Source: Umbilicaria muhlenbergii
Taxonomy: Eukaryota > Ascomycota > Lecanoromycetes > Umbilicariales > Umbilicariaceae
Length of the DNA: 64,000 nucleotides
NCBI GenBank assembly: GCA_000611775.1
Contig: KK106985.1
Coordinates: 2,740,648-2,804,647, forward strand
Direction: 5' to 3'
Numbering within the stretch: position 1 is the stretch's first letter; every line of letters begins with the position of its first letter. The position numbers were made by a program, and so were the translations under genes. Below the pieces are notes generated by a model. It was given only the letters and a program-made list of their open reading frames with translations, did no database searches and was not told the DNA's origin. Shown piece after piece: positions 15,401 to 64,000 of the stretch.

Positions 15401-15850
15401 GCCAGAGGCCAATGCACACCCGAAGACAAAGCCCGTTACATTTCGTCACTCTCTCCCGCCCCGGCCCGTGGACAAAACAACGCTTCCAACACCATCATCT
15501 TCTGCGGCGACGGCACCAACGACGCCCTGGCTCTCGCCCAAGCTGATATTGGCATTCACATGGCGGGCGGCACTGACGTGGCCAAGAGCGCCGCCGATGT
15601 CGTGTTCACGCATCCTTCGCTATCCGGAGTCCTGACTCTCATGGATCTGTCAAGCGCAGCTATGCGGCGCGTCTATTTGAACTTTGCCTGGTCTTTTGTA
15701 TACAACCTCTTCGCTATACTGCTTGCTGCTGGCGCCTTCGTGACGGTCAGGATTCCGCCGGCGTACGCAGGGCTGGGAGAGCTGGTTAGTGTGCTGCCGG
15801 TTGTTGCCATCGCGATGCAGTTGAGGTGGGTCAAGTTGAAGCGGGAGTAG
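12471..15850 (+). CDS. P1B-type heavy-metal ATPase, Pca1-like (Cu/Cd)
   Basis: Main open frame 12761-15850 encodes 1029 residues, but the frame is open without a stop back to 12611, where a TACTCAGAG acceptor and an ACTAAC branch lie. A 30-base first exon at 12471-12500 (donor GTAAGC) joins in phase, giving 1089 residues; this start is the best guess, 12761 the fallback. Counting from 12761: Cys-rich N-tail with CC pairs (TCCSSG, RCCSSA); a heavy-metal-associated domain with GMTCTGC at 182-188; the TGE actuator motif; the metal-site CPC at 671-673; the phosphorylated Asp in DKTGTLT at 715; SSSKHPVS in the nucleotide domain; GDGTNDA near 917. All catalytic motifs are intact, so an active Cu+/Cd2+ exporter is expected, in plasma or endomembranes. 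The Cys-rich N-tail fits the Pca1 group rather than Ccc2. Confidence 0.93.
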
Positions 15851-40471: not shown

Positions 40472-41934
40472 TTATTCCCGGATCCAATCGAAGAGTTTGT
40501 GCGCCAGAGCCAGCGACGGGTAGTCTAATACGCGATAAAAGATCTCGGCGCCGACGGCAGAGGCCGCCAAGCAGGACACCAGGCAGGCGATGACCGCACC
40601 TCCGAATTGCACGTGCTTCTCCACGCTCAAGTGCATGAAGAGTCGGATGCCGATCGTGTAGATGATGGCGCTTTGGACGAGAAACCAGCCTGTAGGAAGA
40701 ATCAAATCAGCATGTGCTCGAATGACTTTGAAGCTAGTGGCGTGCAAGGTATTCCCTGTCACCCCCAATCGTCTCCGAACGTGGCAGCGACAGGGGCGTA
40801 GATGACTAGGACAATGACGTCCGCGACAAGAGGAAAAGGATGGAACGTACTCAGTGATCGACTCCCGAGGTAGTAAAAGAACCTGTTCTGCAGCATCCAT
40901 TGGAGGATGTCGGATGACTCGAGGATCAAGAAGAAGCCCAGCAAAAACACATAGTTGTCCACTCTGGCCTGAGGCTGCTTGACGTCGTACTGGTAGTTGA
41001 GCCCACCGGTGTAGTAGATGCCGGTGTGGACTTTCAATTCGTCATTCGTATCTTGTGGCTTCCACGCGGCCCAGATGTACATCATCGTCAATCCAGCGGT
41101 CATCAGGAGAACAGCAGGGACCCAAGTAGGACACCGGATGGACCTCCAAATCTTGAAGCCGCGCTTCGATTTCACCTTGTAATCCATGTTCATCACCATG
41201 TCGCCGAGGAGGAGACCCGTGATCGAGAACCATGCCCAGGACTGGACCCACCAAGCCGTGATGATGAAGCAGATGAATGCTTCGATGCGCCATCTACCTC
41301 GCGTGTAGGGGATGATCACCATTGTCATATAAATGGTGTAGCTCTGCTGATATATGACGTTGACAATCCATAGTGTTTGCGAGGGAAATGCTTTGCTACC
41401 GGCTTGTCTGGCGAATCCATAAGTTGTCCAGAACAACATGAAACCCGAGTTGAAGCAAGATATGGCGTTGACCATGTAGTACGGCGTCTCAAAGGACTCA
41501 TTGTTAGTGTATGCCTTGAAGCTCTCAATGGCCGCGAGACCTGTTCTAGAGCTTGTAAGTTTGATGATGATTAGAGCGATCGCTACTGGGAAATAAAGAC
41601 GGATTCCTCGGCGGAAGCAGGCGCTGGCGATTGAGGTTTTGGTCGGGTCTCTGAAAAAGGGGATGCATATCGTTCGCGCGGACAGCAAGATGAAAGCCGA
41701 GTAGAGAAGATTGTCGTTCCAGAAGATGACAGAGAAGGTCTTGCGAAGAATGACTTGATACGTCGGTCCTGCAATGTTGTTACCCTTTACGGCGGCAGGG
41801 ACGAAAGTTTGCAGAAAGACCCAGATGAAGGCTTCGAGGGTGAGGAGGCCTCGCAGGCCAAGGAGGTATTCCTGCTCGGACACAACATGATACCGCTGGT
41901 GGAAGAGACTTGTCAACGAAGTCGAGTAACTCAT
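40472..41934 (-). CDS. Acyltransferase-3 (OafA-like) integral membrane O-acyltransferase
   Basis: Two exons, 41934-40851 and 40689-40472, give 433 residues; the 161-base intron joins GSRSL to SWFLVQSAIIYTIGIRLF, matching the family's LGRRSLSYFLVQS pattern. The start at 41934 is the first ATG; the frame is open slightly above it. The N-terminus shows the family entry (EQEYLLGLRGLLTLEAFIWVF) and about ten membrane helices follow. The active-site His-Arg pair usual in bacterial OafA is not evident at the N-terminus, where LRGLL precedes EAF rather than an HH/R motif. Members move acetyl or other acyl groups onto extracellular sugars or lipids. It lies beside a GT2 synthase and faces a second acyltransferase-3 fused to a GH16-like domain at 48.5 kb, which suggests modification of the same polysaccharide. 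Confidence 0.88.
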
Positions 41935-44262
41935 CCTGCCTTTGTGTTTGTGTAGCGGCTTGCTCACAGTGTGCAGAAGTGTCGCCTAACAGTCTCTGCG
42001 GTGTATCTTCATAACATTTTCCCATCCAGGTACGTGACCGGCTGCGCTCTTGATAGATAGGCCCGACAATCCCTACCGAACACGCCGCTGTCATTCGAGG
42101 ATTTAAAAATAGGCCGGCAGACCCTCTGGCAAGCGATCCGCCACGGAGGAGGCGGGCGCAATCCTGCTTGTCCCTGCACTCTGTCTCGCCGCTGGCTCCA
42201 CTCCTACACCGTGAAGACACAAAGTCGCCAGCAGGACCCCACGCGCGCTGCTGTTCGAGCAGGCATCGACGAGGGCTAAGAATCAACGTTCCCAGCTTGC
42301 ATCTTGATAAGGGTCTCGACTGGTCGATAATGTCGATGAGGCAGGGCGATTCTCTCAGCTTCGTTGACAACTGGCTCTGTTGGGGGTTGGGGACGCCCTC
42401 TGTCCTGAGTCACTTGGTAGCCGCTCCAGATAGGGAGCTGGGACAGACAAATCGGTAATTAACACTGCACGTCGTATGAGTTATGCAAGCCACGTTGACC
42501 AGGCCCTCGTTGCCTATGTGCCGTTGGGCTTTTGGGGACTTGGTTGTTTCCAGAATACCCTCACCACATCCACCGTCGTCCCAAGTGGTGGGGGCCGGTG
42601 CCAGCATTAGATCTCGATAAGGCGTTGCGGCCTCATTGACGGGCTTTAATCCGCCAACCACGTGCGGCCAACGGAACAGCGCCTCAATCAGAGATGCCTG
42701 TCTGCCCGGATGCCTGTACGCCCGTGTTCCTGTAGGCCTGTCCGTGGATTTAGGCGGCGGTCCGGCCTGAGGCAGGATTGGCCATCGCATCGGCCTCGTT
42801 CCGGATGAGGGAGCGACGCTGCAGGGGGGCGGGTGCTGCGGCATCTGTCGACCTGACAGACAGCGGATCTTGCCCATGGGCGGCATCGCCCCAATCACGT
42901 CCGGCGGCCGACCGACTGCAGATAAGCTTAGATACCCACAATGCCCAAGACAGCAAATCGATAAAGAGACTGGGACAGGCATGATCCTTGTTTGCGCTTA
43001 AGCTTTTCTGCCGCACCGGTGATGGGGCGCCGCTGCCAGGTCTTCTGGTCTTCGATCCCTCTCCAATCCCAGTGTTACACACGAGAGGGTGTGCTTGTGC
43101 TTGGCAGTCGGCGGTTACAGGGGGGGACGGGCAGTTCGGGTGAAAGAAGAGCTTCCCCAGTGGCAAGCAGATGGACGGAGGACGAGGACGAGTACGGGTA
43201 CGGGTGCCTTGGTACACCGCGTCATCGTACTGGCACGATAGACATGTTGATCATGTCACACATTGGACCCCCATTGACCCCATTCGACTCCATTCGACCC
43301 CATTTCACCCGACATGTCAGCAATAATAGGAGTGGCAACGCCAATTGCATGAGATGTACTCCGTGGGATATATGTGTGTCTCATGTAACGGAACGGGGGA
43401 CGGGTCTGATCAGCTCTGTAGGGTACAGTTACAGCATATTAATAATTGTAAATGCTCTCAGGTCGTACGAATAAAGTTGCACGTCGCGCGAGACGGACGT
43501 GGCACCAAGGCCAAGCTTCTGTACCACGTGTACCTGAGCGGAAGTACCCCCAAGTACCTTACTCCGATCCTCCTAGCTGCCGTAATGAGAGTCGCCCCCC
43601 GGTCGGCCTCTCCTCGCCCTCCACGCTTCTCTAGCTTTCCTCAGCTCGACCAGTGGCCATCCTGACTTCACTGCGAATGCGAGACGTGTTCAGGTTTCAA
43701 CGCTTGGATGCGTCATGATGATCTGTCCCCAGGGCCGTTCAGCTCCCTGGACGTTTATCTTCCGAGTCTCCCTGTCCCGCCGTTGCAGAGATCTACCCTC
43801 GAAGCCTCGAGCTCAGGTACACGACTCAGGTACACTATACCCTATCCTCCGTCGCCAAAGTAGTGAGCTCCCGCCTAATTTAGCTTCCCGCTATCCGGTC
43901 CCAGCGATGCTTCCAACCATGCTCACACTCCGTAACTAAGGTAAGACATTAACCTGGCGAAGCAAATCTTGCACGACAGTCCAAGCTGACTCGGGTTCCA
44001 AACACTGGGGCGCATCGTGAGAGCGTCGAGCGATTCATTATCTTGCTACACGTTGCCGCCGCCCCTGACATTCTATTTCTCGCCTAAAGCCTGTATGTAC
44101 ATTCCGAGATGCAACTGCTGCACAAGAGACTGCTAGAAGACCAATATTTCAACTACCGCATATGTAAAATTATCATTATTCGTGCAACATGTGCCATTTC
44201 TGGGATCTCCCGAAACGTAGATGCGCCGACAACGAGCGGCAGCAGTGCGAGATTACGCGACG
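41935..44262. other. Intergenic region between acyltransferase and GT2 genes
   Basis: 2.3 kb, non-coding as far as seen. It contains a decamer array at 43261-43310. Open frames here (e.g. 42410-42982 minus) lack domain features. Confidence 0.5.
43261..43310. repeat. Decamer tandem array (CATTCGACCC-like), 5 copies
   Basis: Five adjacent units of 10-11 bases, CATTGGACCC, CATTGACCC, CATTCGACTC, CATTCGACCC and CATTTCACCC. Located in the promoter-side gap between the two synthesis genes. Confidence 0.8.
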
Positions 44263-45849
44263 CTATGACCTGGGCGTAGGGTTCCACGAGGTGTACTTGC
44301 ACACTTGTCTCGCGTGACCGTAGAGCCCGATAATGGCCGAAAGAATCAAGTAGAATGGAAAGAGAATGGAGAAGATGATGATCATCCGTGCTGAGATGAA
44401 TTCTGACTTGACGCGATCTGTGATCACTAGAGTGCCAATGAGACAGATGAGACTAGACAGGTTAGCTGCTGCTCACAGTCCAACGGGCCGAGGGAAGTGC
44501 ACAACACACCTGATGATGAAAAGCCAGTAGGCCACTGGGTATTGGAAGAAAAGCAAGCGAAGGAGCGCGGACGCGGTTGTTGGAAAGTTCAACATGATGA
44601 TGCTAGCCACCAGGCAACAGTACTGAGAAACGAAGTAATAGCTGAGTTCCCGGATACCGAGCAGAGATAGCAAGCCGAATCGCTCGGTGAAATTGCGTTT
44701 ACCGTTGGCCGGCTTGTTGATTGTGAGGCGGAGATGCTTCAAACTAGCCTGCGCCCAACCCTGAGCCCACCGTAGACGCTGCTTCCAAAATGCCGGCATC
44801 GTCGTAGGTGCAAGCTCGTAGGAGACAACATTCAAGTCGTGGACGGTGTGGGCACCTCTCGAAACGGCCCTTAGAGACGAGTCGATATCCTCCGTCAACA
44901 TCTCGCCATCCATCTTGAGCTCGCGCAGAAGCGGAGCCCGCCAGTAGCCGTTGGAGCCGGCAAAGAGCCCAAAGCCCCAAGTAGCCGCTCGACCGGGGTG
45001 GGACACGGCGTAGATCTTGTCAAATTCGACGGCTATCATTGCGGCAAGGAAGGAGGCCTTGGAATTGAAGACCACACAACGACCTTGGACGATGTCAATC
45101 TTCGGGTTGGACATGAATCTCTCGATGGCCCATCTGGGACCATAGGGATGTGTGTAATGATCGCAATCAAACACTGCGATAACGTCCGCTCCTGTATCGA
45201 GAGTAAAGAAATAGTTGAGATTATCCGCTTTCGAGGTGGAGCCGGGAACTTTGATGACACGCAGGTGTGAGTGGACAGCTGCTAGATCGGCGATTTCGGT
45301 TTCCAACGGTTCTATCGCTACTGGCGTGTTGTAGACCACATTTATTCTGATCTTGTGCTTCGGATAGACAATCTTTTCTAGTGCATAAAGTATACGATCC
45401 ATTATGATGCCTTTTTCGTTGGGAAGATAGGCGACAATGAGCAGGTCAAGTACTAGCAGGTCGTCATCTGGCGTTGGGAAGACCCAGTTGTTCTCTGCAA
45501 CTTTCCGTACGGCTTTGCGGGCCTCCCTGCATGGCGTTATGCTCATGACCGCCTCCACAACCGTCGATGCCGCAATGTAGAAGTTGGTCGTCAGGTAAAT
45601 GAACCAAAAACACGAGATCAGGCCAGGGGTACAGATCATGTAAAGACAGGTGGAAAAGACGAAGTAGGATACGACGAGGAGGAACGGGGACCAGTCCTGG
45701 ACCAAGGCTTCAATTCGGGCGAACCCAGTCCGGAGTACATCGAGAAGTCGACCCAGGCTGGACGAGATGCTTCTTTTCGACGGCGCTGGACTGCTGCATG
45801 GGAATTTCAGACTCGGCTCAGTGACGGGTAGCGTCATTTCGTGGGCCAT
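44263..45849 (-). CDS. Processive GT2 glycosyltransferase (cellulose/hyaluronan synthase-like)
   Basis: Exons 45849-44510 and 44452-44263 give 509 residues. The start is the first ATG (MAHEMTLPV). Two N-terminal membrane helices (FLLVVSYFVFSTCLYMI, LISCFWFIYLTTNFYIA) precede the catalytic domain: LLIVAYLPNEKGII opens the Rossmann-like fold, VFDCDHYTHP carries the DxD metal site (near 45170), LTEDIDSS the catalytic TED (near 44900) and QRLRWAQGW the QxxRW acceptor motif (near 44770). Four or so helices follow, the last ones in exon 2, ending LSAIIGLYGHARQVCKYTSWNPTPRS. All residues for activity are present, so it should polymerise a UDP-sugar and extrude the chain across the plasma membrane. 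The polymer is unknown. Related GT2 proteins in plant-pathogenic moulds affect hyphal growth and surface coats. Confidence 0.92.
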
Positions 45850-48505
45850 CTTAGAGAACGTCGGTGCTAAAAGTGGCCGGTCTCGAGCGAGGAGCAAAGA
45901 GAAGAACGAGTGAGGATTCTAATTCAAACAATGGACATTACTTCAACGAGAGTTGTGTATGCTTAGGGAAGCAATACTGGGGGAGGACCGATCTGGAGAC
46001 TGATGGCGGTACTGGAGAGGATGTGGCACCGGAGGCTCTGAGATGGGCTCCAGCCTTCCCGTGAAAGATTCCATTCTTAAGAAGAGGAGGAAGTCGCACA
46101 CCCCTGTTGTTGCCAATTAGATTAAGGCGCATTGGGAATGATTGAGACGCCGGGTCATATTCCCTGTGGAGGGCAACAGTCCCAACGGGGTTAGAGGGTG
46201 CTACTGGGGGGGCCAGCTGAAGACGAAAAAGGGAAGCAGGCTTTTTTCAGTACGAAGCAGGTACGCGAATGCACCAGGGAACGACCGAGACCGAGGACGG
46301 AGACAGGGAACAAGGGGTGCAGGGTGCAGAGCCAGAGATAGAGAGATGCATTTCGCATATCGCGATAAGGGTTCACCACGGGCCTGTCAAGCGTGCCGGC
46401 TGCAGTTGGTGCCGGCGAGGATGAAAACGCTCGGCGGACGATTCGACAATCGAGATTTCGAGAATGATGGAATGGAATTCGTGTAATTGACTTTTCTTAC
46501 CTTGGCCATTCTCTCAACTGCATGAGGAGGTGCAGGCTGGAGGGAGCAGCCTGCAGGATGCAATGACGCCGCAGCCTGGCTGCCACCCTGGCAGTTGAGC
46601 ACGATGGAGATGGACGAGTTACCCTGGCTCCACACGCCATCGCTCCAGCCATGGCACGCCATTACTGCCATCGTGGAGCATCGCTCAACGCCATTGCCAC
46701 GCCATTTGCACGCCATTGGTGGTTCGTCCCGCTGCCCGCGTCGAACTCTGTTTGGCGACTTGGCATCGACGGAGCAGCTGGGAGGCGTGACGGAACACGC
46801 TTGGGACGAGCCTGGGACGAGCCTGGGACGAGCCTACAACGAGCCTGGGAAGAGCGTACAACTGAGATTCGCCCGGCCGGACTGGGCAGGCTCTTGGCAG
46901 GGCCTTGGCGTCCCATTGGGGCTCGAACGGGGCGTGCCGGGGCGTGCCGGGCACGTCACACCTCAGCTTCTCGCATGCGAACCCCCCCCCGGCACGCCAG
47001 GCGTGCTGTGACAGCCGTGTGGTGATAGCCGGCACTGTGTAGCCACACCAGTAGTCCATTCCTGCCATCCTGATCCTGTTAGTCCAGTGCTGCCCCAGCT
47101 GGACACAGCTGCCGACTTGCTCCTGCCCACTCCTCCTGCCCACTTCCCAGCTGGCGAACCTCCATCCGACACGTGCGGGTCGAGATACCAACTGCGCAGA
47201 TAAGACATCGAAAAGCGTCGGGCCTGGCCCAATCAGCGGCCGCGCTGGCTCCACTGGGGACATGATTGACACTACGAGGAACACGACTAAGCAAAGTACA
47301 CACGAGGCGCACCCACATCACCCGTCACCATTCGCAATCATCCGGGACACTAGCACCTGCTCTGGGTTGAACTTTGTTGAGTACAATCCGCAAGACTGCT
47401 GAGTCTTCACCACCACGACTCCGCCAGTTGCACGCCGGCCACAATGCACAATGCAATGGCCATGCTCGCAGATGTGCCCGTTGGCGTTGGCATGTACTAG
47501 GTACTGGGTCAATGTAGGCAGAGGTCGAATGTAGGTAGATCGGCCACGGCCTGCCGAGTGAAACGCCGAGTGGTACCATGGCATCTCTGTTTGGTTTGGC
47601 CCTTCGGATGATCTCCCTTCGCTGTGGCCTGATGCCTGAACCGAGCACGATCGCAGTCTCAGTCTCCATCTCGAATTGCATCCTCTGCTGAGCCGGGAGC
47701 ATGGACCCAAGCACCCAAGGACCCACGACGAGGCTGGGGCTTCGACCAAGCGGGTCTTCCGTCGTCCGTGGGTGCCAGGCAGAGGGAAATGGGAAACGGG
47801 GAAAAAGCTGACGGGCATGGCTGGAAGGGGAATCCTTCGAACTGCAGGCGACCTATATTTAGCACGCTTCCATGGTGTCACCGTTCCTGCAGCATTGAAG
47901 GTCAAGCCTGTTTGCACGTGTAAGACCATTTGCTCGGAAGGGCAGGGAGGGTGGCGGGCCCGCTGAGTCGCTGGGTCGCTGGGTCGCCGCGATTGTGACG
48001 GGTTGTCTCTCCACGCCACCCCAACCCACCCAACCAGGTGGTGTGGACGTGTGGACCTGGATGGCGATCAGCGCTCTTTCCGCTGAACGCACTTCCGTAA
48101 TCGTACGGGGTTGCATACCCAATCGTCCAGCGCTGCCACACCTGCGACCGCGAAGTGGATGGGCGACTCGGCCTGATATGGCCAAGACGGCGCTTGGCGC
48201 GCAGGGCCAGCGAGACGTCTAGGGTCGAGGGGTGCCCGGACGTGCCTGTACGGGCCTGTACGCCTGGACGTGCCTCAGCCTGTGAGTGCCTCAGCCTGTT
48301 CAGAAAACGCTCGCCCTGACCTAATTTCAAAGGACCACAAGGCCGGATAAATGACAGTGTCAAGCCTGCGTGAAGACGTCCCGTCTCCCCTCCTCCACTG
48401 TCCCGCCCTCTCGAGTGTGACGACTGGCTAATCCTTTGACCCGTTCCTGATCCTCAATTTCTCGGTCTTGCAAACAGCCACCATCCCTCAGATCCCTTCC
48501 CAACA
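45850..48505. promoter_or_regulatory. Long shared promoter between GT2 synthase and GH16-acyltransferase genes
   Basis: 2.65 kb between divergent genes, with no gene recognised. It carries unusual short repeats: about four copies of GAGCCTGGGAC at 46801-46851, a GGGGCGTGCC duplication near 46929-46950, several CGCCATT words at 46660-46715, a GTCGCTGG run near 47967-47985, and GCCTGTACG copies at 48244 and 48254. The direct 5' leader of the fusion gene is pyrimidine-rich. Assigned as regulatory because of position only. Confidence 0.5.
46801..46851. repeat. 11-12-base direct repeats in divergent promoter
   Basis: Successive units of GAGCCTGGGAC(G), four copies with one diverged (GAGCCTACAAC). 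Confidence 0.75.
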
Positions 48506-51500
48506 ATGGATGGCTGCTTCGGACCCCTACTCGGCCTCATAACGCTCTTGCTGCTCACCATCTCTGCCTCCAATGCCTCCAACGTAACAGCAACGACCAT
48601 GTCGTCGAACTGCCCATGTGGCTACTATGATGCCGCGGCGGGGACACTCTTCACCGAGTCCCTCATTGTATACTTCAACGAGACGGCAGCCCCGCCGTTC
48701 AACGGCTTTGACATACAAGACTACGAACACAAGTACGAGAAGGGCTGGAACAGTCAGTATCGGATGGGCGCCAGCTCTTCCAATGTCCAGATTGGGAACA
48801 ATTCGCTCGAACTCCACCTCAATCCACCTACGTCGCAGCATCTTGTGGTCGGTAGCGATTTACGAACTTCGAGACAGGATATCCACTTTGGCTCCTTCAG
48901 GTCGCTGTTACGCTCACCACCCGCCGGCGGGGGAGGAAGCGTCTTGTCCATGACTGTCAAATACAATGATACCGAATCGACCGCGCTGAACCTGATGAAT
49001 ACTAATAAGCCGGAAACCGCCTGGGCCAGCATGTTGCTTCACGATGACTTCCCAGATCGTTCGCAAGGGGCCGGTTACGCCAACATGACCAACATTACCA
49101 CATCACCTTGGGATTTTACCGAATATCGAGTTGACTGGACTCAGAACGAGACCAAATACTTTATTGATGAAGTCCTATACCGTACAATACCCAGGGAGGA
49201 AGACAAGAAGCTCCCCAGCGTTCCTGGAGCCTTGTATCTCACACACTGGTCAACAGGGAACTACTTTTCTTCGCAAGGACCCCCCCCAAACGAGACCGTC
49301 GCCAGCGTCGGCTGGGTACGCTTGTTCTTCAATTCTTCGGTGATGACGAAAGACGACCACGCAGACTTCGACTCGCGTTGTCACGTCTCCGACGCCTGTG
49401 CAGTGGCTGATATGACGCTCCGAGGGTCGACACCATACTCCGCGGCGTCAACGCTGAAATGGAAGCAGGTGAATCCTCCAAGAAACACACACACGCCGGC
49501 CCTGGTGATCGTCATCATCTGCAGTGTAATATCCGGGTTCGTTCTCTTCAACGCAATAGTGAGAAGGATACCGTTTGAGAAGCTTCGAATGGCCAAGTAC
49601 AAGTTAAAGCCCTTCAGGGAGTCGAAGTCCAAGTACCACAGCTCACCGTACGCGCCGTCATTACAGCTAGTATCAGACGATGCCACATATAGCCCGCCGA
49701 CGCCGTCGATATACTCCTCGCACGCACCAAGGTCAGAAGCTCTCAGCCTCAACGAAGCAATGCGATCATCCATGTGGCCGGATGCGGAGAGACTTTCCTC
49801 TGCATGGGCAACTCCTGGAAATGGGATGACGCCCACATTGAGGCATGCATCACGCGAAAACCTCTCCATTCGAATGTCGGCGGCTACGCTAGAGACAGCA
49901 ATCACTCGTCATCCCAGCGTGGCGGCGAGTACCACTACAGATCCTAAAGGGTCTGGCATCAGAACACTTTCGAAAGACCTCCACGCTTACTTTTCCGAGC
50001 ATCCACTGGATCCAAGAAGCGACTCACCGGTTGGGGCCTCTTCTGGGAGCAGTGTCGCCAATGAGTCTTCTGGCAGACACACAGGCACTTCCACAACGAA
50101 GGATGTAGACGCGATCGAGCAAGTACGAGATGAGCCTCCTCTTTACACAACTGACGTCATCGACTACGGTACAGACTCAGGCAAAGGCTTTGTCCCGATT
50201 GTCGCTGTGGCACCACTGCATCCCCAACAGGCCCAGTTAGAGGACTTTCACAACGATGAAAGCGTCAGGAAGGGTCCAGAACAGATCGAAGAGAAACAGC
50301 CTGTCCCGCCCAAGACAGAGGGTTTGGTAAACCTGCCGGTTGCCGCCAAGCGCGTAGACTACCTGGCCGGATTGGTCGCTCTGAGTTCGCTACTCGTCAC
50401 AGCCATCCATTTCTCTCTGACCTTTATCCCAGCAGCGGTTAATCCCGGTGCGTTCTACCACTACAAGAGTGAAATCTGGGCCAAGAAGATCATCGATCCT
50501 TACCTGCTCAACTTGATCTGGATTGGCCCCTTCCTGATGACTTCAACACGCTTCCTTGTCGCGAGCTACCTCAGGAGTGGAAAGCTCCTCGGTGTCGCCG
50601 AGAAGACGGTCGGAAGGCCGTTCCGTCTGCTCATTCCCATCACAGCTATTGCGATGCTGGAATATTTCTTCATGGATTCCGGCGCCCTCACTTGGCTTGA
50701 GTACCTTCCGTCGGTTACATGGTCGACCTGGCCTTTCGCAGTCGTGCCCACGACGTTCGGCAATTTTATTAGTGAGATCTTGGAGCTGGCATACCTGATC
50801 CCCAACGCTGCGCCGCAGATCACTACGAACTACTGTACCGGTGTTCTATGGACAATCCCGGTACAACTTCAAGGATCCTGGGTTACCTTACTCGGTGTTA
50901 TTGTCATCCGCGAAATCAGGACCCCTTGGAAGCGATTTGGTTACTACGCGTTCTGCTTTTTGATGCATTGGTACGCATTGTCTTGGGGAACATACTTTTA
51001 CTTCGGCATCATGCTCGCGGACCTGGACCTCACCTACAAGTGGAAGACATGGCTCTACGCTCGTCCTTTCGCCTACTATCCTCTGGTTGCGCTGTGTTTC
51101 TGTGCGGGCTTTGGCGGCCTTACCATGGACCTTGTTACCCAGTGGACCCAAGTCAACTATTCCACGTTTGAATACGGCGTGCATCCCGACATTCCTACCG
51201 GACTGCCCATCATGTTCACCGGCGCGAACACCTACCCTGAATACTTCGTGCCGAAGTTAAACGGCCTTGTCTTCTCCATGGGCTTCCAAGCTCTCGTCGA
51301 GCTGAGTCCGCTTGTCCAGAAAGCCCTCTCCTTCAAGTTCTTCGTCTACGTCTTCCCGCACATCTTCACCATCTACTTGATCCATGGCTTCATTTACTGG
51401 AGCTTGGGTGCCATGATTTGTGTTTACTTATCCGCCCATGGCTTCCCGTACTGGTTGAACCTGCTGGTTGTCGCCATCTGTTGCTATTCTACGCTCGTCG

Positions 51501-51904
51501 CATGCTTGCCGCTGCTAACGCCTGTGGTGGAGACTTTGGGCAAGAACGTCACGTTGAACATCTGGCTCTATGCCTCCCAGAGACCCGCTCCGCGAAGGCC
51601 TACACTCTTCCCGTTCCCGGACGACCTACTTGCGTGCCGAGGTACGACTGCTTTGGACGAAAACTTGAGCAAGTCGGACAAGAAGCATGTGGAAATGATG
51701 GGCAGGAAGGATGTGGAGAAGGCAGAGGTACAGGGCCACATCGAAGATGAGGAGAAGGCTGAGGTGGTTGCGCACGACCAAGAAGTGGCGCGGAAAATGA
51801 GTGTGCAGATTGAAAACGATGCGCAGGAGGAAAGGGCCCATGCGGAAAGGGCTCACGAGGAAAGGTCACATGAGGAACGGCCTCATGAGGAAAGGATAAT
51901 ATGA
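48506..51904 (+). CDS. Fusion: secreted GH16-like domain + acyltransferase-3 membrane domain
   Basis: One exon, 1132 residues. Signal peptide MDGCFGPLLGLITLLLLTISAS (cleavage near 24). Residues about 30-300 resemble a GH16/concanavalin A-like beta-sandwich (NSLELHLNPP, SRQDIHFGSFRSLLRSPP, TEYRVDWTQNETKYFIDEVLYRT, HWSTGNYFSS), with many Asn-X-Ser/Thr glycosylation sites. The catalytic strand, which in GH16 reads E-x-D-x-E, here reads NDTESTALNLMN: the catalytic acids are absent, so a lectin-like role is likely. One membrane helix (ALVIVIICSVISGFVLFNAIV) and a ~260-residue disordered cytoplasmic linker follow. Residues about 615-1040 form an acyltransferase-3 domain with about ten helices (KRVDYLAGLVALSSLLVTAIHF, ... 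TIYLIHGFIYW). The tail has a run of AHEER/PHEER repeats. Predicted to bind a cell-surface glycan outside and acylate it or its precursor. Upstream gene, across 2.65 kb, is the GT2 synthase. Confidence 0.88.
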   Translation: MDGCFGPLLGLITLLLLTISASNASNVTATTMSSNCPCGYYDAAAGTLFTESLIVYFNETAAPPFNGFDIQDYEHKYEKGWNSQYRMGASSSNVQIGNNSLELHLNPPTSQHLVVGSDLRTSRQDIHFGSFRSLLRSPPAGGGGSVLSMTVKYNDTESTALNLMNTNKPETAWASMLLHDDFPDRSQGAGYANMTNITTSPWDFTEYRVDWTQNETKYFIDEVLYRTIPREEDKKLPSVPGALYLTHWSTGNYFSSQGPPPNETVASVGWVRLFFNSSVMTKDDHADFDSRCHVSDACAVADMTLRGSTPYSAASTLKWKQVNPPRNTHTPALVIVIICSVISGFVLFNAIVRRIPFEKLRMAKYKLKPFRESKSKYHSSPYAPSLQLVSDDATYSPPTPSIYSSHAPRSEALSLNEAMRSSMWPDAERLSSAWATPGNGMTPTLRHASRENLSIRMSAATLETAITRHPSVAASTTTDPKGSGIRTLSKDLHAYFSEHPLDPRSDSPVGASSGSSVANESSGRHTGTSTTKDVDAIEQVRDEPPLYTTDVIDYGTDSGKGFVPIVAVAPLHPQQAQLEDFHNDESVRKGPEQIEEKQPVPPKTEGLVNLPVAAKRVDYLAGLVALSSLLVTAIHFSLTFIPAAVNPGAFYHYKSEIWAKKIIDPYLLNLIWIGPFLMTSTRFLVASYLRSGKLLGVAEKTVGRPFRLLIPITAIAMLEYFFMDSGALTWLEYLPSVTWSTWPFAVVPTTFGNFISEILELAYLIPNAAPQITTNYCTGVLWTIPVQLQGSWVTLLGVIVIREIRTPWKRFGYYAFCFLMHWYALSWGTYFYFGIMLADLDLTYKWKTWLYARPFAYYPLVALCFCAGFGGLTMDLVTQWTQVNYSTFEYGVHPDIPTGLPIMFTGANTYPEYFVPKLNGLVFSMGFQALVELSPLVQKALSFKFFVYVFPHIFTIYLIHGFIYWSLGAMICVYLSAHGFPYWLNLLVVAICCYSTLVACLPLLTPVVETLGKNVTLNIWLYASQRPAPRRPTLFPFPDDLLACRGTTALDENLSKSDKKHVEMMGRKDVEKAEVQGHIEDEEKAEVVAHDQEVARKMSVQIENDAQEERAHAERAHEERSHEERPHEERII

Positions 51905-52383: not shown

Positions 52384-53605
52384 TTACCCCGACGTTTCCC
52401 TCCATTGCCCGCAATACCTATTACTTACCGTTACTACATCCTCCACATCCGTCAGTCCCATCGTCCAGTAATCCCCTATCGGCTGGCTCGGGTCGCAAGC
52501 CCCCCCTGAATACAGCGGCTGGCACCCCACCGTCGCGCCCTCGTCGTCGTCGTAGTTGTACCCCGCGATCGTCGCGCCGCAGCTGCCCCAGTCCGTCTGC
52601 GTCATGCACTGCACGCAGCTGTCGTACGCTGTGGGCGCCGTGAAGTATCCGTAGTACCGCGGCGGCTAGTTGTTGCACTCGACGGTGTTGATGGGGCTGC
52701 CGGAGCCGGATTGGTTCATCAGGTTGGTGGGGCCGTAGGCTGCGTAGTAGGTGGGGCCGGGGAGGGTGACGGTTACGGTGGTGGTGCTGGTGGAGATGGT
52801 GGTGCTGGCGGTGCTGGCGGCGAGGGTCGAGGTGGTGGTGAGGGTGGTGCTGAAGGTTTGGGTCGTCGAGGGATTAGGGTGTTGGTTATGGCCTTGGAGA
52901 TGTAACTTCGGATCGTCACTGTGGAGCGGGGGAGTATGCTGGTGGATGTCCTGGTGGTGATGACATTTGTTTTTGTGGTGGTGAGGACGATCAAGTCGTT
53001 GCAAGAGACTGTCGTCGGGTAGACCGCTTTGTTGGACGTGGTCGGATGGTTGATGATCACGCGGGGATCGATATGAGAGCCAGATATGGGCTCATCCCGC
53101 TTCTCAGCGGCACCGTGAGCCGCATGTTGGCTTCCAAGCTCCTCACTGGACTGATCGCGCCTGTTCTTCACCGCCCCAGACACGCCGACGGGTACGAAAC
53201 CTAGAGAGGGTTGAACCGTTGTGAGTGGCGCTGTCACAGTAGTTTCTCCGGCCGAGATTGTGACTGTAGCGTTCTGAGTGACCGTGGGCGCGACGGAAAT
53301 CGCTGAGATGAATGTGGTCGTGGTTGAAAAGGTGTCGGTGGCCGTATTGGGTAATACTGTTGTTGTGGTTATGAGCACCGTAAAAGTTGTGGTGGTTGTC
53401 GCCGGTGCTAACGTCGTTATGGTGAAAGGGGTGAAAGTTTTCACTACCACCGCTGTTGATGTAATAGTCCGGAAATAGGTCGTCGTTGGCAACCGGGCTG
53501 GCTTCGATTTGCCAAGCTTTGTGATGCAAGTCTCGCGGACACGCCCAATGCAGAAGACAAGAAAACTGAGAAGGCTAAGATCTGAGGCAAGATGAAAAGC
53601 TGCAT
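52384..53605 (-). pseudogene. Thr/Ser-rich secreted cell-surface protein, probably broken
   Basis: Reading the minus strand from 53605 gives a signal peptide (MQLFILPQILAFSVFLSSALG). A 41-base candidate intron would join it to PARLPTTTYFRTITSTAVV, a long Thr-rich mucin-like region to about 52870. The coding signal then moves to another frame (TTQTFSTTLTTTSTLAAST ... VTVTLPGPTYYAAYGP) with no usable splice sites, passes one in-frame TAG at 52666-52668, and ends in a Cys-rich module (SCVQCMTQTDWGSCGATIAGYNY) near 52400-52630 of the kind seen at the C-termini of fungal surface proteins. A GTAAGT donor at about 52430 hints at another exon. Either a decayed gene or one with errors in the CAC-rich tract. 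Host gene, not a mobile element. Confidence 0.4.
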
Positions 53606-54844
53606 CGTGAATTTTGAGAAGGACTGAAAGTGAAGGCCTCTCTCGGAAACGGTGAGCTCACGTACAAGGCTTCGTCTCGAAGATATATCAAACCGTCCGG
53701 CTGCCCTCGACCGCACAGCTCTCGAGACGGTTCACTAAGGGTGGTCATTGCGAATACGACCTCGGACAGTTATGTCTCAAGCAGATACGGACGGTGAAGA
53801 GCTTTGAAATGGCCAAGTTTCAGACAAAGCGTTGCTGTCTGTGCTTGTGAACAGCCCCGCCTACAACGGCTCCAGTAGCACCACAGGTTAATTCTTACAG
53901 AAGGCGGACTTTACTCTAAGGAAGCAGGAGCTGCATCGACAACGACGCTCTGGGCACTGAAGAACACGCCGTCTTGCGTACAGGCCAGCATGGCATGAGG
54001 GTCGTCTCTGCACTGCAATGGAATGACTCGATACCGTGACTTTGCTCACGGCCCGATGGAGGCTGTCCAGGCCTGCGCTGGTGTAGCATCATCATACTCG
54101 GAGTATTCCGTCGAGCAGTCGAGATGGTCGCTTTGACATGGGATCGGCGGCCCGATATGACGGGATGAGATGGCCTTGGTCGAGAGCACGTGCACCATTC
54201 GATCGTTCCCCAGATGCGGTAATGCCGTGGTGCCGGACGGGCAACGTGGCTTGGCTTTCCAGCAACGTGGTCGATTCTCGGCACGCTTGTAGCGGCGTCG
54301 TCAAAGCTTTCAGGCTTTTCGGCAGAGGTCAATGCAGAGAATGTGGCGTTGGCCTCCCACGATTCCCTTGCGCAGTGGTGCGGCCCTTGCATATTCAAGG
54401 TACAACCTTAGTAAGGCGAGGTGCCGGTAAGGCACAGCTCCCATGTTCAGCATCCCACATCCCATACATCTGCCTAAAGAACCCTGCGGCAGCAAGGTCT
54501 CGTATTTGTCACTGTCTCTAAGAAGTATGATATCACCGCCCTCGAGTCAACGGGGCCTACCCCAGTTCCTGCCGACCGACTTCGCTGCCGAGGTCACATC
54601 GAATGCGCCACAAACGACCAGTGGACGAACTACGAGTCCTCGTGCGTACATGTGCGTCGCCCAATGGGGAAGAGCAATATCAACCCGCCATGTACTCCCG
54701 ACAACGTGAACACTACTTTTCGTATGATTCGTGTGTGGAGTTGAAAGCCCTTTTCATGATTGTTCGTCGTCTCATCGTAATTATGTACTAAGGTAGAGAT
54801 GAAATGGTAAGAAATAAGAAGTGAGAATGAAATATCCCATTCGC
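53606..54844. other. Intergenic region
   Basis: Non-coding gap between the mucin-like gene and the NOS-like gene. The open frame 53916-54398 (minus, 160 residues) shows no domain and is not called. Confidence 0.45.
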
Positions 54845-57800
54845 TCAAAAGACCTCTTCCACGTATCGTGATCCCAGAACATTCTGAACTTCTGCACCCA
54901 ACATCCTACTTAAAACCGCGGCCGTGGACTTTACCATGGATTTGGCCCCGCATACGTAAACAGTAGCCTCAGCCAGATTGGAGCGCACCCACGCATTCCC
55001 CTCCAGAACATCCTGAACCCGCGTCTTTTCCGGATTGCTGGGGACCATTACTAGCTCGTCAACCAGAGTGCCGCAGCGACCCGTGATTAACGTCTCTTCG
55101 AACATGGCACGATCCTCCACTTTATAGCCCGTAAATAGACAGAGGGGAGAGGAATTGGAAAGGCCTAGTTCCGGCTGCGCGATGGCAAGGCTGAGATCAT
55201 GCTCCACCTGCGATAATCGCATGCCTGCGTTTGTGCTAAGAAAGCGTTGTTGGAGCAAGCCGCGGATAGGAGCGAAACCAGAGCCCGTGGCGATGGCAAT
55301 CAGAGGCCTGTTCTCCAGTCTAATTATATCAAGACTTGGCGCTGAAGGCATCGCGCAGAACTTTACTGTATCGCCGGGCTGTACGTTTGACAGGAAGATA
55401 TCACTTAATCGCCCCTTGGAGTGGAACCGGATCAGAAGTTCCAGGATATTGTGTCCCAGAAAGCCTGGCGCAGAAGCGACGGAGAAGGTGCGCGGCCGAA
55501 GAAGAGGCATATCTAGACACACCTCCAGTAGGATCTTCTCATAGTCTGCCGTATCATCGCATCCAAGGATACCGCGAGCGGAATAAAGTTCAAGTACTTC
55601 AATGACTGGTGCTTTTCGTACGCTATCATCCGGCGTATGGGCCGGGAGCCAGTCGAGACTTTTGAAGTGGCCTTCCAGGTCAACAAAATCGGCAAGAAAA
55701 CTGTCGAATGTAGGAGGATCCTGGAAGCCGTTGAATTGCACGGCCTTTTGACCATCTGTAACCCCTAGAGCAACGAGCGCTCTTTTGATGTTACCTTGAG
55801 AGTTGGAAGGGAGTATTCGCAAATGGTCCATGACTTTGTAACTAATCCCCTGTAGATCCAATTGCAGGGAAAGGATCTTATCCATTGGTGGGTCCTTAGC
55901 AACAACAAGGGCTTCTTGGAATTCTCGGATCATGTGTTCCTGATCACGGAAGCAGTCTTCTCGTGTTTCCTTGGCCACCACTGCTCCAGCTAGATTTGAC
56001 TGAACATTGTCCCACCATCGATTGAAAGCTGTCGTTGGCAGTATCTCCATTGTGACGTCTCCCATGGTCAGGCCTCCAGCGATCGGCCGGGCTCCTAATT
56101 CAGCAAACAAGGCATTGAGCGCGATTGATGCAGCGTTGTAAGTAGCGCCATATCCACTGTCGCCGACCCCGAAGATAGAGTAACTCGCTCTATGCTGATC
56201 GGAGGAATAACGCTTCCTAAGGGCGGGCCACTTATTTTCAAACGTGCGGCCGTTCGCTGGAAGCGTTCCATTACCGGTAGTTGAGGCAACTATCACAATG
56301 ATTTCATCTGGCTTGATGGCTTCTAGATCGATGGCGTTCAAAGAATCGAATTTTGCAAGGTGATATTTAGGAATTTTGACGACGCGTTGTCGTAGCTTTT
56401 CGGCAAGCTTCAGAGCGGTCGTCCCGGTGCTGCAGAAGTAGATATGTAGCCTTTTACGGACGTCCACAATCTCCTGAAGCCTTGGCCATGTCCCGCCTGC
56501 TGCTGGTATGGCAGTCGCAATGGCGGTCGAAGTCTCGAGGTGCTACACGAGTTAGCCGCGGAGCTTGAGAGGCTTGAAACTATCATACCCAGATGCCGTT
56601 CAAAAAGCGTAAGGACACTGGTAGAGCCTTCGATTTAGATTTCCGCCTGTGCCAGACCTTGACCGGATCGCAACGGTGCTTGGTTATTAGCGGTTTCGGT
56701 TGATAATTTGGTGCACCCCCTCTGTGCCAGAGAGGGATGATGGACCCTTGAGGGGGAGCTATCCAATATGGATCTGCGTTCAGCCTATAGCCCTTTTCTC
56801 GAAAATGATCGTCGTCGAACCGACACCAGTCGCTCGAGGCTGCAAGGGTTCCGATGCAAGATACACCTTCTTGCTGGAACGACCATCGTACAGCATAGTT
56901 GAGCTCAGCTTGAGCTTTGGACTGTGCACCGGTACTAAGCATGGGAAACGGAATACTGGAGACTTTATTACCTTCCAACGCAATTGCTCATAATCGGGCA
57001 GATCGTCGATTGACTCGACCGATTTGTACGCATCTTGTTTCCTGTAAGCATTGATGTCAAAGCCAATCGCTTCTACAACAGACGGCAGAGCATCATAGCG
57101 AAATGGGTCAGCAAGGTTTCGAACGCCAATCTCTGCGTCCATGAACCTAAGCGCACAAGTCAGCCAAGCAACGACCAAGTTTTTGATGTGACCAACCATC
57201 CTATGAATGGAGCTGCGGTATACTGAACCCCGCCAACGTCGAACCCAAAACGCGACAAGGCGGGAAATCGACCCCATCGCAAATCTAGCTTCTCGAACTC
57301 TGCAGCGTAGTCAGGATGGGAGATCTTAATATGCTTGCTGAGACTGTGTGGAATATCCGTCATCGCGGGAGCATCGCCCTCAGCCAGAGCAACAAGTGGA
57401 AGGAAATCCCATCGTGATTGGGGTTCTGGTGGCGTCCATCCGAGCTTGATAATCTCGTCCGTCAAATCGACATTGGCTGGGTCACCGAGGATTGAGCCAT
57501 CTGATTGCCGATACTAAAAAGCCGCACCAAGTAAACATGACGAAATGGCGTTGACTCAATATCTTGGGGGCACATACCCCTGCAAAGTTCAGCACCTGTT
57601 GACTTATGAACATCGGACCTGTGCCTTGGGTTTGTCGAGGAGGAAAGACGAACACTAGCCATAGTTCAGCGGCCGACTGGATCAAGACAGACGAGGGTGT
57701 TACCTGTTGGCACAATCTTTCCACAGCCATAGGCGTTTTCAAGGTTCTCTAGCAGTGTACTAACCATCCCGGCGCTGGTCGTCACAGCCCTCAGATCGCA

Positions 57801-58414
57801 CAGTCTGTTGCCCATTAGACTACGAAAATGCAGTCGACATAGAAGAAGGCTCACTGGAGCTCATCCCAATGTGAGCGCATAATACACCTCCGGGAGTTTT
57901 TCCACGCTAGCCGAACGCCATGCAACAGCTCTTGGTATGTCTGTGTCCAGGTCGACGTTGTACCGAAGTCTTTTCGTTGCATCTCCCACAGCGTCTCCTC
58001 AACAGCTCCCTGGTCCAACTCAGCCAAGACTTCATCAAGCCTTGCACGATATTCTTGCTTCGTATAAATCCCGTCGCGCTGCAGCTCCCATAGAAACGCA
58101 CTTGCTTCTTCTTTGACTACCTTGAGACTGCGACTCTCTCCAACCTTTGTTTCCCTAGAGTGCATCATCTTCGCCCCCTGGCAGATTTGCGCGGTGCATC
58201 CTGTGTCGGCTAGAACCTTCGTCTCTCGGAGGATAAGGTCGACCTCAGGGGAGGTAAATGGGCACTTGGAGTCTGAGACTGCTTTGATTGGGCATAGATC
58301 TGCTAATGTCATTTTGGTGCTCCGCAGACCGTCATCGACCTCAGCCGTAGTATGCGTGGTGAGGGCCAGTGATGATCCCGCAAACCTGGACTGATCTTGT
58401 AGTATACCGGGCAT
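54845..58414 (-). CDS. Nitric oxide synthase-like fusion (oxygenase + FMN/FAD/NADPH reductase)
   Basis: Seven exons, 58414-57855, 57804-57704, 57654-57578, 57513-57197, 57146-56972, 56921-56589 and 56542-54845, give 1086 residues; six introns of 46-64 bases all fit splice consensus and phase. Oxygenase (about 1-520): zinc-type CTAQIC; heme ligand Cys177 in HGVRLAWKNSRRCIMR; LCDLRAVTTSAGM; VFPPRQTQGTGPM; YRQSDGSILGDP; APFIGWFMDAEIGVRNLADP; AELNYAVRWSF. Reductase (about 540-1086): FMN domain with CSTGTTA, VASTTGNGTLP and GVGDSGYG; FAD motif RPRTFSVAS; NADPH motif GSGFAPIRG and a terminal VYVCGAKSM. Family enzymes oxidise arginine to citrulline and NO, with electrons passed from NADPH. Changes: the arginine-binding Glu is Asp338 (FGFDVGG), and the V-DHH-T and FHQE pterin/heme-side motifs are replaced. 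Substrate and product may therefore differ. NOS-like genes occur patchily in moulds. Confidence 0.9.
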
Positions 58415-58560
58415 GTTTGCTGCTTTGGAGATGAACAGATATAACCTATGGGTGATTCAAGAAATGAAGAATGGTGATTGTAGCTATGTACAATACTCGA
58501 GCACGAGAGACTAGGAATAAACATTTGAGGGGAAGCACTCAAGCACTCATCTTAAAGGGT

Positions 58561-62900: not shown

Positions 62901-64000
62901 CAAGATCATGAAAGAGTGCAAACTGATGAAGTAACTCATATACTCATTGTCACCTCAGAAGTTAAATGCATTGTGAGAATATTTAAAGAAGAACTTACAA
63001 AAAGAATTCATTCAGAAATCTTAATCTTTAGCAGGATATCTGATATTGTTTATCTTAAAATCTGATGAATCATTGAGATTGTGTGTTGACTACAGGGTAT
63101 TAAACAACATAATGATAAAAAACAATTACTCACTGCTGCTCATATCAGAACTGCAGGACAGATTTCAGAAAGTATAATAATTCATGAAATTCAACATCTC
63201 AAGAGCATTCAACCAGATATAAATAAAAAAAGATGATGAATGAAAAACAACATTTCAAACATGCTCAAGACTATATGAGTACTTGATAATGTTGTTCAGA
63301 TTAATCAACACCCCTGCAACTTTTCAGGCTTTCATCAACAATATTTTATGATAATATTTAAATCAGTTCATGATCATCTACCTTGATGATATACTGATGT
63401 ACTTGAAAATGAAAGAGTAACACATCAAACATGTTCAGAAAGTTCTACAAGCGCTAAAAGACACTGACTTGTGAGTTAAGCTTAAGAAAAGTCTTTTTCA
63501 TGTCAAGGAAGTTCAATTCCTCAGATTTATCATCACATCAGAAGGTCTATGAATGAATCTGAAAAAAATCAGTTTCATGATTAAATGATCAGTTCTGATG
63601 AATGTTAAGGAAGTACAATTCTTCTTAAGCTTTGCAAACTTCTATAGAAAGTTCATTAAGAAATATTTTAAAATCACAGCACCTCTAATGAAGTTGATGA
63701 AGAAAGACTGAAAGTTTGTTTAATTTACTGAAGCACAAAAATCCTTCAAAGAGCTGAAGAAGCACTTCACATCATAATTAATTCTCATGAGTTTTGACCC
63801 TGAGAAGCTTATTATGCTTGAGATGAATGCATCAGACAGAGCTATAGAAGCATGCATTAATCAATCAGATGATAAAAAATGTCTGTGATTAATAACTTAT
63901 TACTCACAGAAGCTTTTAAGTGCTGAACAGAGTTATAAAATACACAACAAGAAGCTGTTAACTATTGTTGATGCATTCAAGCAATGACATGTATATCTTG
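59930..64000 (+). mobile_element. Ty3/Gypsy LTR retrotransposon, decayed fossil, continues past window end
   Basis: AT-rich block whose broken reading frames carry, in order: a non-coding leader or LTR-like part with a TATATAA box near 60324; gag-like region about 60,850-61,450 with a zinc-knuckle-like remnant; aspartic protease remnant near 62,330; reverse transcriptase about 62,950-63,530 (YLDDIL active-site signature near 63,385); RNase H about 63,790 to the edge. Order protease-RT-RNase H supports Ty3/Gypsy. The frames hold dozens of breaks, so it is inactive and probably old. LTR ends are not defined. Almost no CpG remains (see findings). Confidence 0.88.
60203..60238. repeat. Perfect 15-base inverted repeat, 6-base loop
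   Basis: Arms TGATCAAGGTGATCA (60203-60217) and its exact reverse complement (60224-60238), within a cluster of TGATCAAG words across 60187-60308 in the leader of the fossil element. Could form a hairpin; probably part of the element's LTR. Confidence 0.85.

What the first reader, a model, noticed from the sequence alone, without database searches (positions are those of the whole stretch)
40472..51904. Candidate extracellular-polysaccharide locus: GT2 synthase, free acyltransferase-3, GH16-like/acyltransferase-3 fusion
Sequence shows a catalytically complete GT2 synthase (DxD, TED, QxxRW), a second gene for an acyltransferase-3 and a divergent gene fusing a secreted GH16-like lectin/glucanase fold to another acyltransferase-3. 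Established: GT2 synthases extrude polysaccharide, acyltransferase-3 proteins O-acylate surface sugars. Inference: these act on one polymer and form a co-regulated module. Two distinct acyltransferases with one synthase suggests two acylation positions or substrates.
Basis: partly seen in the sequence, partly recalled or inferred. Interest (0 to 1): 0.78.

Follow-up and report, generated by a model that had tools for sequence, protein, structure and literature searches.

The report
Fungal sugar-polymer synthase gene cluster
Three neighbouring fungal genes look set up to make and chemically decorate a sugar polymer outside the cell, and the polymer-making enzyme has close bacterial relatives whose genes usually sit next to a sugar-decorating enzyme too.

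Summary
The three genes are real, consecutive and end exactly at the given coordinates. The GT2 (509 aa, one intron) keeps DxD, TED and QxxRW. It is neither the known fungal Cps1/ZtGT2 type nor a chitin synthase. It belongs to a bacterial-type synthase family (37-49% identity to 80 fetched bacterial loci; nearest named models PgaC/IcaA and cellulose synthase, both far below cut-off). In 61 of 81 bacterial loci an acyltransferase-3 (AT3) gene follows this GT2 directly. Two details of the reading fail. The GH16-like domain has lost its catalytic motif, so it is more likely a binding module than a glucanase. The free AT3-like protein has lost both conserved histidines, so "two acylation positions" is unlikely; it is probably a degenerate helper. 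The free and fused AT3 domains are related to each other. Best reading: a synthase-dependent extracellular beta-glycan locus with one acylating, polymer-binding fusion enzyme. Product, co-expression and conservation in other fungi could not be tested. New variant of a known kind (ica/mat-like synthase plus AT3 loci).

The parts
40472..41934 (-). Free AT3-like membrane protein, 433 aa, 2 exons (41934-40851, 40689-40472; intron 40850-40690). Keeps the TM1 Arg and RxxR, lacks the TM1 His (V39) and the C-terminal His (Q367).
   Evidence: model; no Pfam match; related to the fusion's AT3 domain; motif columns
44263..45849 (-). Bacterial-type processive GT2 synthase, 509 aa, 2 exons (45849-44510, 44452-44263; intron 44509-44453)
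48506..51904 (+). Fusion protein, 1132 aa: signal peptide, GH16-like extracellular domain, one TM, about 260-aa linker, AT3 domain, charged C-terminal tail
48572..49480 (+). GH16-like domain (residues 23-325), catalytic ExDxE replaced by STALN; 10 of the protein's 15 N-glycosylation sequons lie here
50330..51640 (+). AT3 domain of the fusion (about residues 609-1045): keeps H635, RxxR (704, 707), W782, H960, E1009; the TM1 Arg position is V624
45850..48505 (.). 2.66-kb intergenic region between the divergently transcribed GT2 and fusion genes; no clearly coding ORF by codon use

Best explanation
This is a small locus for making and modifying one extracellular polysaccharide. The GT2 uses a cytosolic sugar nucleotide to build a beta-linked homopolymer and passes it through its own membrane helices, like PgaC/IcaA, BcsA and hyaluronan synthase (motifs and fold computed here; product inferred). 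The fusion protein holds its inactivated GH16-like domain outside the cell, where it likely binds the emerging polymer, and its AT3 domain carries an acyl group across the membrane and places it on that polymer (domains and residues computed here; activity inferred). The free AT3-like protein comes from the same AT3 branch but has lost both conserved histidines, so it is probably not a second acyltransferase but a helper, for instance in polymer passage or assembly (inferred). The GT2 gene is of a bacterial-type family, and synthase plus AT3 is the usual arrangement of its close actinobacterial relatives, although the fungal AT3s were apparently not inherited together with it.
For: GT2 motifs identical in the fungal protein and 81 of 81 bacterial relatives. 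Sequence-profile matches in the PDB to cellulose synthases (1e-19) and PcManGT (1.5e-13); AF2 model of the first exon pLDDT 79.5 with Foldseek matches led by BcsA, hyaluronan synthase and PcManGT, then chitin synthases. NCBIfam nearest models PgaC_IcaA 2.8e-19 and CelA 2.2e-15, far below their equivalog cut-offs. Best match in 72,556 plasmid records: a Streptomyces megaplasmid, 219 bits, against 87 at most among the other 24 of 361 records that were listed. Among 81 bacterial loci, 61 have an AT3 domain directly downstream on the same strand (starting 0-164 nt after the GT2 stop), one more 2.4 kb away and none elsewhere in 1.07 Mb. In 7 Gram-negative loci the GT2 shares an upstream neighbour gene that in the one scanned (L062) has TPRs and a PgaA-like barrel, as in exported PNAG systems. 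Fusion and free AT3 domains are homologous over nearly their whole length. The three genes are consecutive.
Against: The fungal AT3s do not match the bacterial operon AT3 profile (free E 0.16, fusion E 4.8; an unrelated short ORF of the window scored 0.045), while two other AT3s of the same fungal genome do (1e-8, 5e-5); profile-profile comparison also failed (probability 1.8). So the shared GT2-AT3 neighbourhood is not visibly the inheritance of one operon and could be coincidence or separate recruitment. Gaps between the genes are large (2.3 and 2.7 kb). 20 of 81 bacterial loci have no AT3 directly downstream; for 2 of these the held DNA ends too soon. The fusion lacks the TM1 arginine that pairs with the histidine in OafB, so its activity is uncertain. 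No expression data, and no other fungus could be searched.
Confidence: 0.55

Rival explanations
1. Chance neighbours: the GT2 makes its polymer alone, and a pair of related AT3-like genes (an old local duplication) happens to flank it and serves other glycans.
For: The two AT3-like genes are related to each other, so their joint presence may be one event, not two. Intergenic gaps are kilobases. The fungal AT3s are not visibly of the bacterial operon AT3 group.
Against: A GT2 of this particular family beside AT3s is the pattern seen in 61 of 81 bacterial relatives. Only two other PF01757 matches were reported in the whole fungal genome (a lower bound, from 4 scored candidates).
Confidence: 0.27
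2. The GT2 is not a polymer synthase but a monosaccharide transferase acting on a lipid or protein, like the archaeal mannosyltransferase PcManGT.
For: PcManGT is among the top fold matches and a profile match at 1.5e-13.
Against: QxxRW and TED, typical of processive synthases (recalled), are present in 81 of 81 bacterial relatives and the fungal protein; cellulose synthases score higher in the profile search; PgaC is the nearest named model; a Gram-negative relative neighbours a PgaA-like barrel.
Confidence: 0.12
3. The GT2 is the known fungal Cps1/ZtGT2 cell-surface synthase (or its Cps2 paralogue), so the locus is already described.
For: Also a fungal GT2 with DxD and QxxRW and membrane helices (PMC6731526, PMC9500679; passages).
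Against: The genome holds better candidates: MoGt2 has D156 and Q301, 145 apart (PMC6731526, passage); L027 has 145 or 146 (by which D of its DDD is counted), L028 142 or 143, L029/L030 143 or 144, the window GT2 129. The GT2 ORFs of these loci do not match the window GT2 (BLASTP E <= 1, phmmer only chance-level hits to other ORFs).
Confidence: 0.06

Closest known systems
ica operon of staphylococci / mat cluster of Streptomyces (PNAG synthase plus AT3 IcaC or the acetyltransferase SCO2961)
   Same: A processive GT2 of the PgaC/IcaA type next to an AT3-type membrane protein; extracellular polymer that aids adhesion (PMC4391728, PMC5972031, PMC9558356; passages read).
   Different: No deacetylase gene was seen among the three fungal genes; the AT3s are divergent; one is fused to a GH16-like domain; eukaryotic genes, two with introns; product unknown; far below the PgaC_IcaA equivalog cut-off (69 against 422 bits).
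Bacterial GT2-AT3 gene pairs (L038-L118 set, mostly Actinomycetota)
   Same: GT2 37-49% identical in the best segment, AT3 directly adjacent in 61 of 81 loci.
   Different: Of five bacterial GT2 proteins scanned, L038 and L118 carry response-regulator and GGDEF domains, L039, L054 and L108 show neither; the fungal one has neither. The bacterial AT3s are canonical PF01757 proteins (three scanned: L038, L054, L108).
Cps1/ZtGT2/MoGt2 fungal synthases
   Same: Fungal membrane GT2 thought to make an outer polysaccharide (PMC5653360, PMC9500679; one section and passages read of each).
   Different: Different subfamily by motif spacing and by lack of detectable similarity to Cps-like genes of the same genome.
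AT3-SGNH fusion acyltransferases (OafB, OatA) and Cas1p
   Same: An AT3 domain joined to an extracytoplasmic carbohydrate-related domain (PMC9833829, PMC9558356, PMC2824669; passages read).
   Different: Here the outer domain is N-terminal and GH16-like without its catalytic motif; Pfam found no SGNH or esterase domain.

Membership tests
Processive GT2 synthase (PgaC/BcsA/HAS fold) | DxD, TED and QxxRW motifs (recalled as defining) | tested here: met
   D228, D230, T319-D321, Q357-W361; same residues in 81 of 81 bacterial relatives
Processive GT2 synthase (PgaC/BcsA/HAS fold) | GT-A domain followed by membrane helices, like solved synthases | tested here: met
   AF2 pLDDT 79.5 for the first 446 residues; Foldseek E 2.9e-15 to BcsA, 1.3e-14 to hyaluronan synthase, TM-scores about 0.5
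Processive GT2 synthase (PgaC/BcsA/HAS fold) | Makes and extrudes a polymer | not testable with these tools
   needs biochemistry
PgaC/IcaA PNAG synthase | Score above the NCBIfam equivalog cut-off | tested here: not met
   69.4 bits against 422.3 (first exon)
Cellulose synthase BcsA/CelA | Score above the NCBIfam cut-off | tested here: not met
   55.7 bits against 699.1 (first exon)
Fungal Cps1/ZtGT2 | Sequence similarity and DxD-Q spacing as in MoGt2 (145) | tested here: not met
   spacing 129; no match to the GT2 ORFs of L027-L030, of which L027 has 145-146. Named Cps1 sequences themselves were not at hand
Acyltransferase-3 (PF01757), fusion protein | Pfam gathering score | tested here: not met
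   17.3 bits against 31
Acyltransferase-3 (PF01757), fusion protein | TM1 Arg and His, RxxR, Trp, C-terminal His and Glu | tested here: inconclusive
   H635, R704, R707, W782, H960, E1009 kept; the TM1 Arg position is V624
Acyltransferase-3, free protein | Conserved TM1 histidine | tested here: not met
   V39 where 28 of 28 reference sequences have His; second His position is Q367 (27 of 28 have His)
Glycoside hydrolase family 16 | Pfam PF00722 gathering score (fold membership) | tested here: met
   35.6 bits against 22
Glycoside hydrolase family 16 | Catalytic ExDxE motif | tested here: not met
   STALN; the paralogue L004 has EIDLE, L016/L017 (overlapping loci of one gene) EIDFE

The most novel reading that the evidence does not exclude
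A fungal exopolysaccharide machine built around a bacterial-type synthase, with a split acyltransferase: the fusion keeps the TM1 histidine but has lost the TM1 arginine, while the free protein keeps the arginine and has lost the histidine. The two AT3-like proteins might therefore work only together, as one acyl-transfer unit guided to the polymer by a dead GH16 lectin. The synthase-AT3 partnership would then have been assembled independently in fungi and bacteria.
Probability: 0.08. Interest if true: 0.8.

Novelty: new variant of a known kind. Interest (0 to 1): 0.48.

Why it matters
To my knowledge few fungal extracellular polysaccharides have known genes, and the fungal GT2 papers seen here follow Cps1 and chitin synthases. 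If right, this gives a compact candidate locus for an acylated fungal polymer, with a synthase of a family whose relatives found here are all bacterial, and makes the synthase-AT3 pairing directly testable. The complementary residue losses in two related AT3-like proteins are a concrete biochemical question.

Tried and rejected
Cps1/ZtGT2 and chitin synthase identities for the GT2 were tested and rejected. Starship cargo: 21 DUF3435 matches in the genome, none in or near the window (those on contig C5 lie at 0.86 Mb, the window at 2.74 Mb). Co-transfer of the bacterial AT3 with the GT2: not supported. Direction of gene transfer: the careful tree (50 rows: the fungal one, 46 of 81 bacterial, 3 of 5 outgroups; bootstrap not fully settled) puts the fungal GT2 beside two Nocardioides sequences (94/88) on a very long branch (3.32); a bacteria-only clade is not rejected (p-AU 0.067), so nesting is unproven (the quick tree of 87 rows agrees with support 85). 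A first genome scan with the fungal GT2 alone found no relative (34 stretches); only the scan with the two-sequence alignment did. AF2 of the AT3 pair failed (pLDDT 35) and was not used. Viral contigs: no relative among 92 stretches. Tblastn of the fusion AT3 domain against plasmids: no match. PDB searches for the AT3s: no match. Print: the searches listed no paper that I recognised as describing this gene set or a GH16-AT3 fusion; for most listed papers only title and start of abstract were seen. Passages searched for terms in the Colletotrichum HGT paper (PMC4320630), the Actinoplanes EPS paper (PMC13390465) and the Starship paper (PMC12134995) held nothing that decided the question. My first motif count rested on 43 rows picked partly by those motifs; it was replaced by a count on 81 of 81 loci.

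Full report
What is there. The coordinates of the finding match three genes exactly. The free gene runs on the minus strand from ATG 41934 to its stop ending at 40472, with a 161-nt intron (433 aa). The GT2 runs on the minus strand from ATG 45849 to 44263, with a 57-nt intron near its 3' end (509 aa). The fusion runs on the plus strand from ATG 48506 to 51904 without an intron (1132 aa). The splice sites were chosen by hand (GT-AG and open frame), not from RNA. A codon-use score trained on eight other ORFs of the window gives the three genes 0.056-0.063 per codon, and no ORF of 70 aa or more in the gaps between them exceeds 0.009. So they are taken as consecutive genes, 2.3 and 2.7 kb apart.

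The GT2. Pfam gives PF13632 (1e-18) and PF13641 (5e-14). DxD, TED and QxxRW are all present. The window lies on contig C5 of an unnamed 34.8-Mb genome in 7 contigs. In that genome the GT2 has no detectable paralogue by protein search. Family searches gave 10 PF13632 matches (E <= 1) and 11 PF13641 matches (E <= 10, 8 over the cut-off). L010-L013 carry the QRRRW of chitin synthases (the naming is recalled). L027, L028 and the L029/L030 pair look like the Cps1/Cps2 type: L027 has 145 or 146 residues between DxD and QxxRW, as MoGt2 has 145 (D156, Q301; PMC6731526, passages), against 129 in the window GT2. BLASTP (E <= 1) finds no match between them and the window GT2, and phmmer only chance-level hits to other ORFs. 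The window GT2 is therefore not the described fungal synthase (PMC5653360, passages and section 8; PMC9500679, passages and section 3.1). No named Cps1 sequence was at hand, so this rests on motif spacing and mutual dissimilarity.

Its relatives are bacterial as far as these tools can see. Tblastn against 72,556 plasmid records gave 361 records with matches; the best is a Streptomyces megaplasmid (45.6% over 272 aa, 219 bits); of the other 24 listed, the highest has 87 bits. A scan of 84,980 prokaryote genomes with the fungal GT2 alone found nothing. A second scan with an alignment of the fungal and Streptomyces proteins found 441 stretches, 217 of them relatives; the best 80 were kept and examined (37-49% identity in the best segment). 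With the plasmid locus that makes 81 loci, mostly Actinomycetota, with Ramlibacter and related Burkholderiales, Chloroflexota and one Acidobacteriota. The motif residues are the same in 81 of 81. No fungal collection could be searched, so 'bacterial family' means 'with bacterial relatives', not 'only in bacteria'. The tree cannot settle direction: long fungal branch, 94/88 support for a join to L054 and L108, p-AU 0.067 against a bacteria-only clade (46 of the 81 bacterial rows used). Those two Nocardioides GT2s, like the fungal one, show no response-regulator or GGDEF domain in Pfam. Of the three others scanned, L038 and L118 do and L039 does not.

Neighbours of the bacterial GT2. A profile made from the AT3s found in these loci shows an AT3 domain directly downstream on the same strand in 61 of 81 loci, 0-164 nt after the GT2 stop; one more (L073) lies 2.4 kb away; none elsewhere in 1.07 Mb. 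Because the profile was built from these AT3s, distant AT3s elsewhere could be missed. In L038 stop and start overlap. Of the 61, 36 are Streptomyces, counting the plasmid locus, and the rest fall under ten other genus or order labels, so they are not independent events. Of the 20 without, L046 has no downstream DNA and L080 only 261 bases; L073 has its AT3 further off; the other 17 are Pseudomonadota (6), Chloroflexota (4), Acidimicrobiia and kin (3), Cryobacterium (2), Mycolicibacterium and Acidobacteriota (1 each). Seven loci (Ramlibacter 4, Polaromonas, Oxalobacteraceae, Acidobacteriota) share an upstream ORF, each matching the six others; the one scanned, in L062, has TPRs and a PgaA-like barrel (7.6e-7). 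Other neighbours scanned were response regulators and histidine kinases in L058, L062, L087, L095 and L098, and a GH30 in L040. These surroundings fit regulated, synthase-dependent export of a polymer. The closest described arrangement is GT2 plus AT3 in the ica and mat loci, where the AT3 IcaC has been proposed to O-succinylate PNAG or to transport it (PMC9558356, PMC4391728, PMC5972031; passages).

Structure. AF2 with 42 aligned sequences gave pLDDT 79.5 and pTM 0.74 for the first exon's 446 residues. Foldseek's best PDB matches are cellulose synthase, hyaluronan synthase and PcManGT, then chitin synthases. A profile search of PDB sequences found cellulose synthases (1e-19) and PcManGT (1.5e-13). 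NCBIfam's nearest models are PgaC_IcaA and CelA, both far under their cut-offs. So the fold is that of a processive synthase, and the sugar is open; GlcNAc or Glc polymers are the likely candidates (inference).

The two AT3-like proteins. The fusion's domain scores below Pfam's cut-off; the free protein gives nothing. Yet the two are homologous over nearly the whole domain (23% over 417 aa, E 6e-12 in a five-sequence comparison; Smith-Waterman 190 against at most 92 in 1000 block shuffles). In an alignment with 26 of the 62 bacterial AT3s and two other AT3s of the same fungal genome, the TM1 Arg and His are present in 28 of 28 references. At these places the fusion has Val and His, the free protein Arg and Val. 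Both keep RxxR and the Trp. The second His (27 of 28) is kept in the fusion and is Gln in the free protein; the Glu (28 of 28) is kept in the fusion and Asp in the free protein. [quoted passage not shown] The free protein is therefore probably not a working acyltransferase, and the fusion may be.

The two are not close to the bacterial operon AT3s: profile E 0.16 and 4.8, within the noise of unrelated window ORFs (best 0.045), against 1e-8 and 5e-5 for the other two fungal AT3s; hhalign probability 1.8. Synthase and AT3 were apparently put together separately in the fungus, or the AT3s diverged beyond recognition, or the neighbourhood is chance.

The GH16-like domain. It matches PF00722 above cut-off and is 27% identical over 220 columns to a paralogue in the same genome (L004, E 5e-21), which has EIDLE where the fusion has STALN. 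It is preceded by a signal-like segment and followed by a TM helix; 10 of the 15 N-glycosylation sequons fall in it. It is most likely an extracellular carbohydrate-binding part (inference).

How it most likely works. Shown here by computation: intact synthase motifs and fold, bacterial relatives paired with AT3s, a fusion with an inactivated GH16-like part and a mostly intact AT3, a degenerate second AT3. Inferred: polymer, acylation, and a helper role of the free protein. Not testable here: product, co-expression, other fungi.

Noticed in passing
window 54845-58456 (-): Gene fragments for a nitric oxide synthase: oxygenase domain PF02898 (2.7e-31 and 2.8e-10 in two ORFs) and a flavodoxin/NAD reductase part in one large ORF, near the cluster.
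   Followed up: partly
window 22072-25872 (+): 1266-aa protein with NPHP3_N/NACHT and many ankyrin repeats, NLR-like architecture.
   Followed up: no
window 12599-15850 (+): P-type metal ATPase with HMA and PCA1-type HMA domains.
   Followed up: no
G000 C1:1487160-1487858 (L029) and C2:4078126-4078824 (L030): An identical Cps-like GT2 ORF on two contigs, in opposite orientation; the 3.7-kb loci agree at about 80% of positions without gaps. Looks like a recent duplication.
   Followed up: partly
window 41910-41941 and 42339-42370: Imperfect 32-nt inverted repeat (78%), one arm over the start codon of the free AT3-like gene; may be chance.
   Followed up: no
window 60001-64000: GC falls from about 0.5 to 0.32-0.34; perhaps a repeat-derived AT-rich block.
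   Followed up: no
window 52387-53657 (-): ORFs with coding-like codon use, the larger one Thr-rich and without a Pfam match; probably the next gene beside the fusion.
   Followed up: no
G000, 21 matches to DUF3435: Many Starship-captain-like fragments, most with in-frame stops, none near the window.
   Followed up: partly
L040:2808-4466: A GH30 glycosidase gene upstream of the bacterial GT2-AT3 pair in a Marmoricola genome bin.
   Followed up: no
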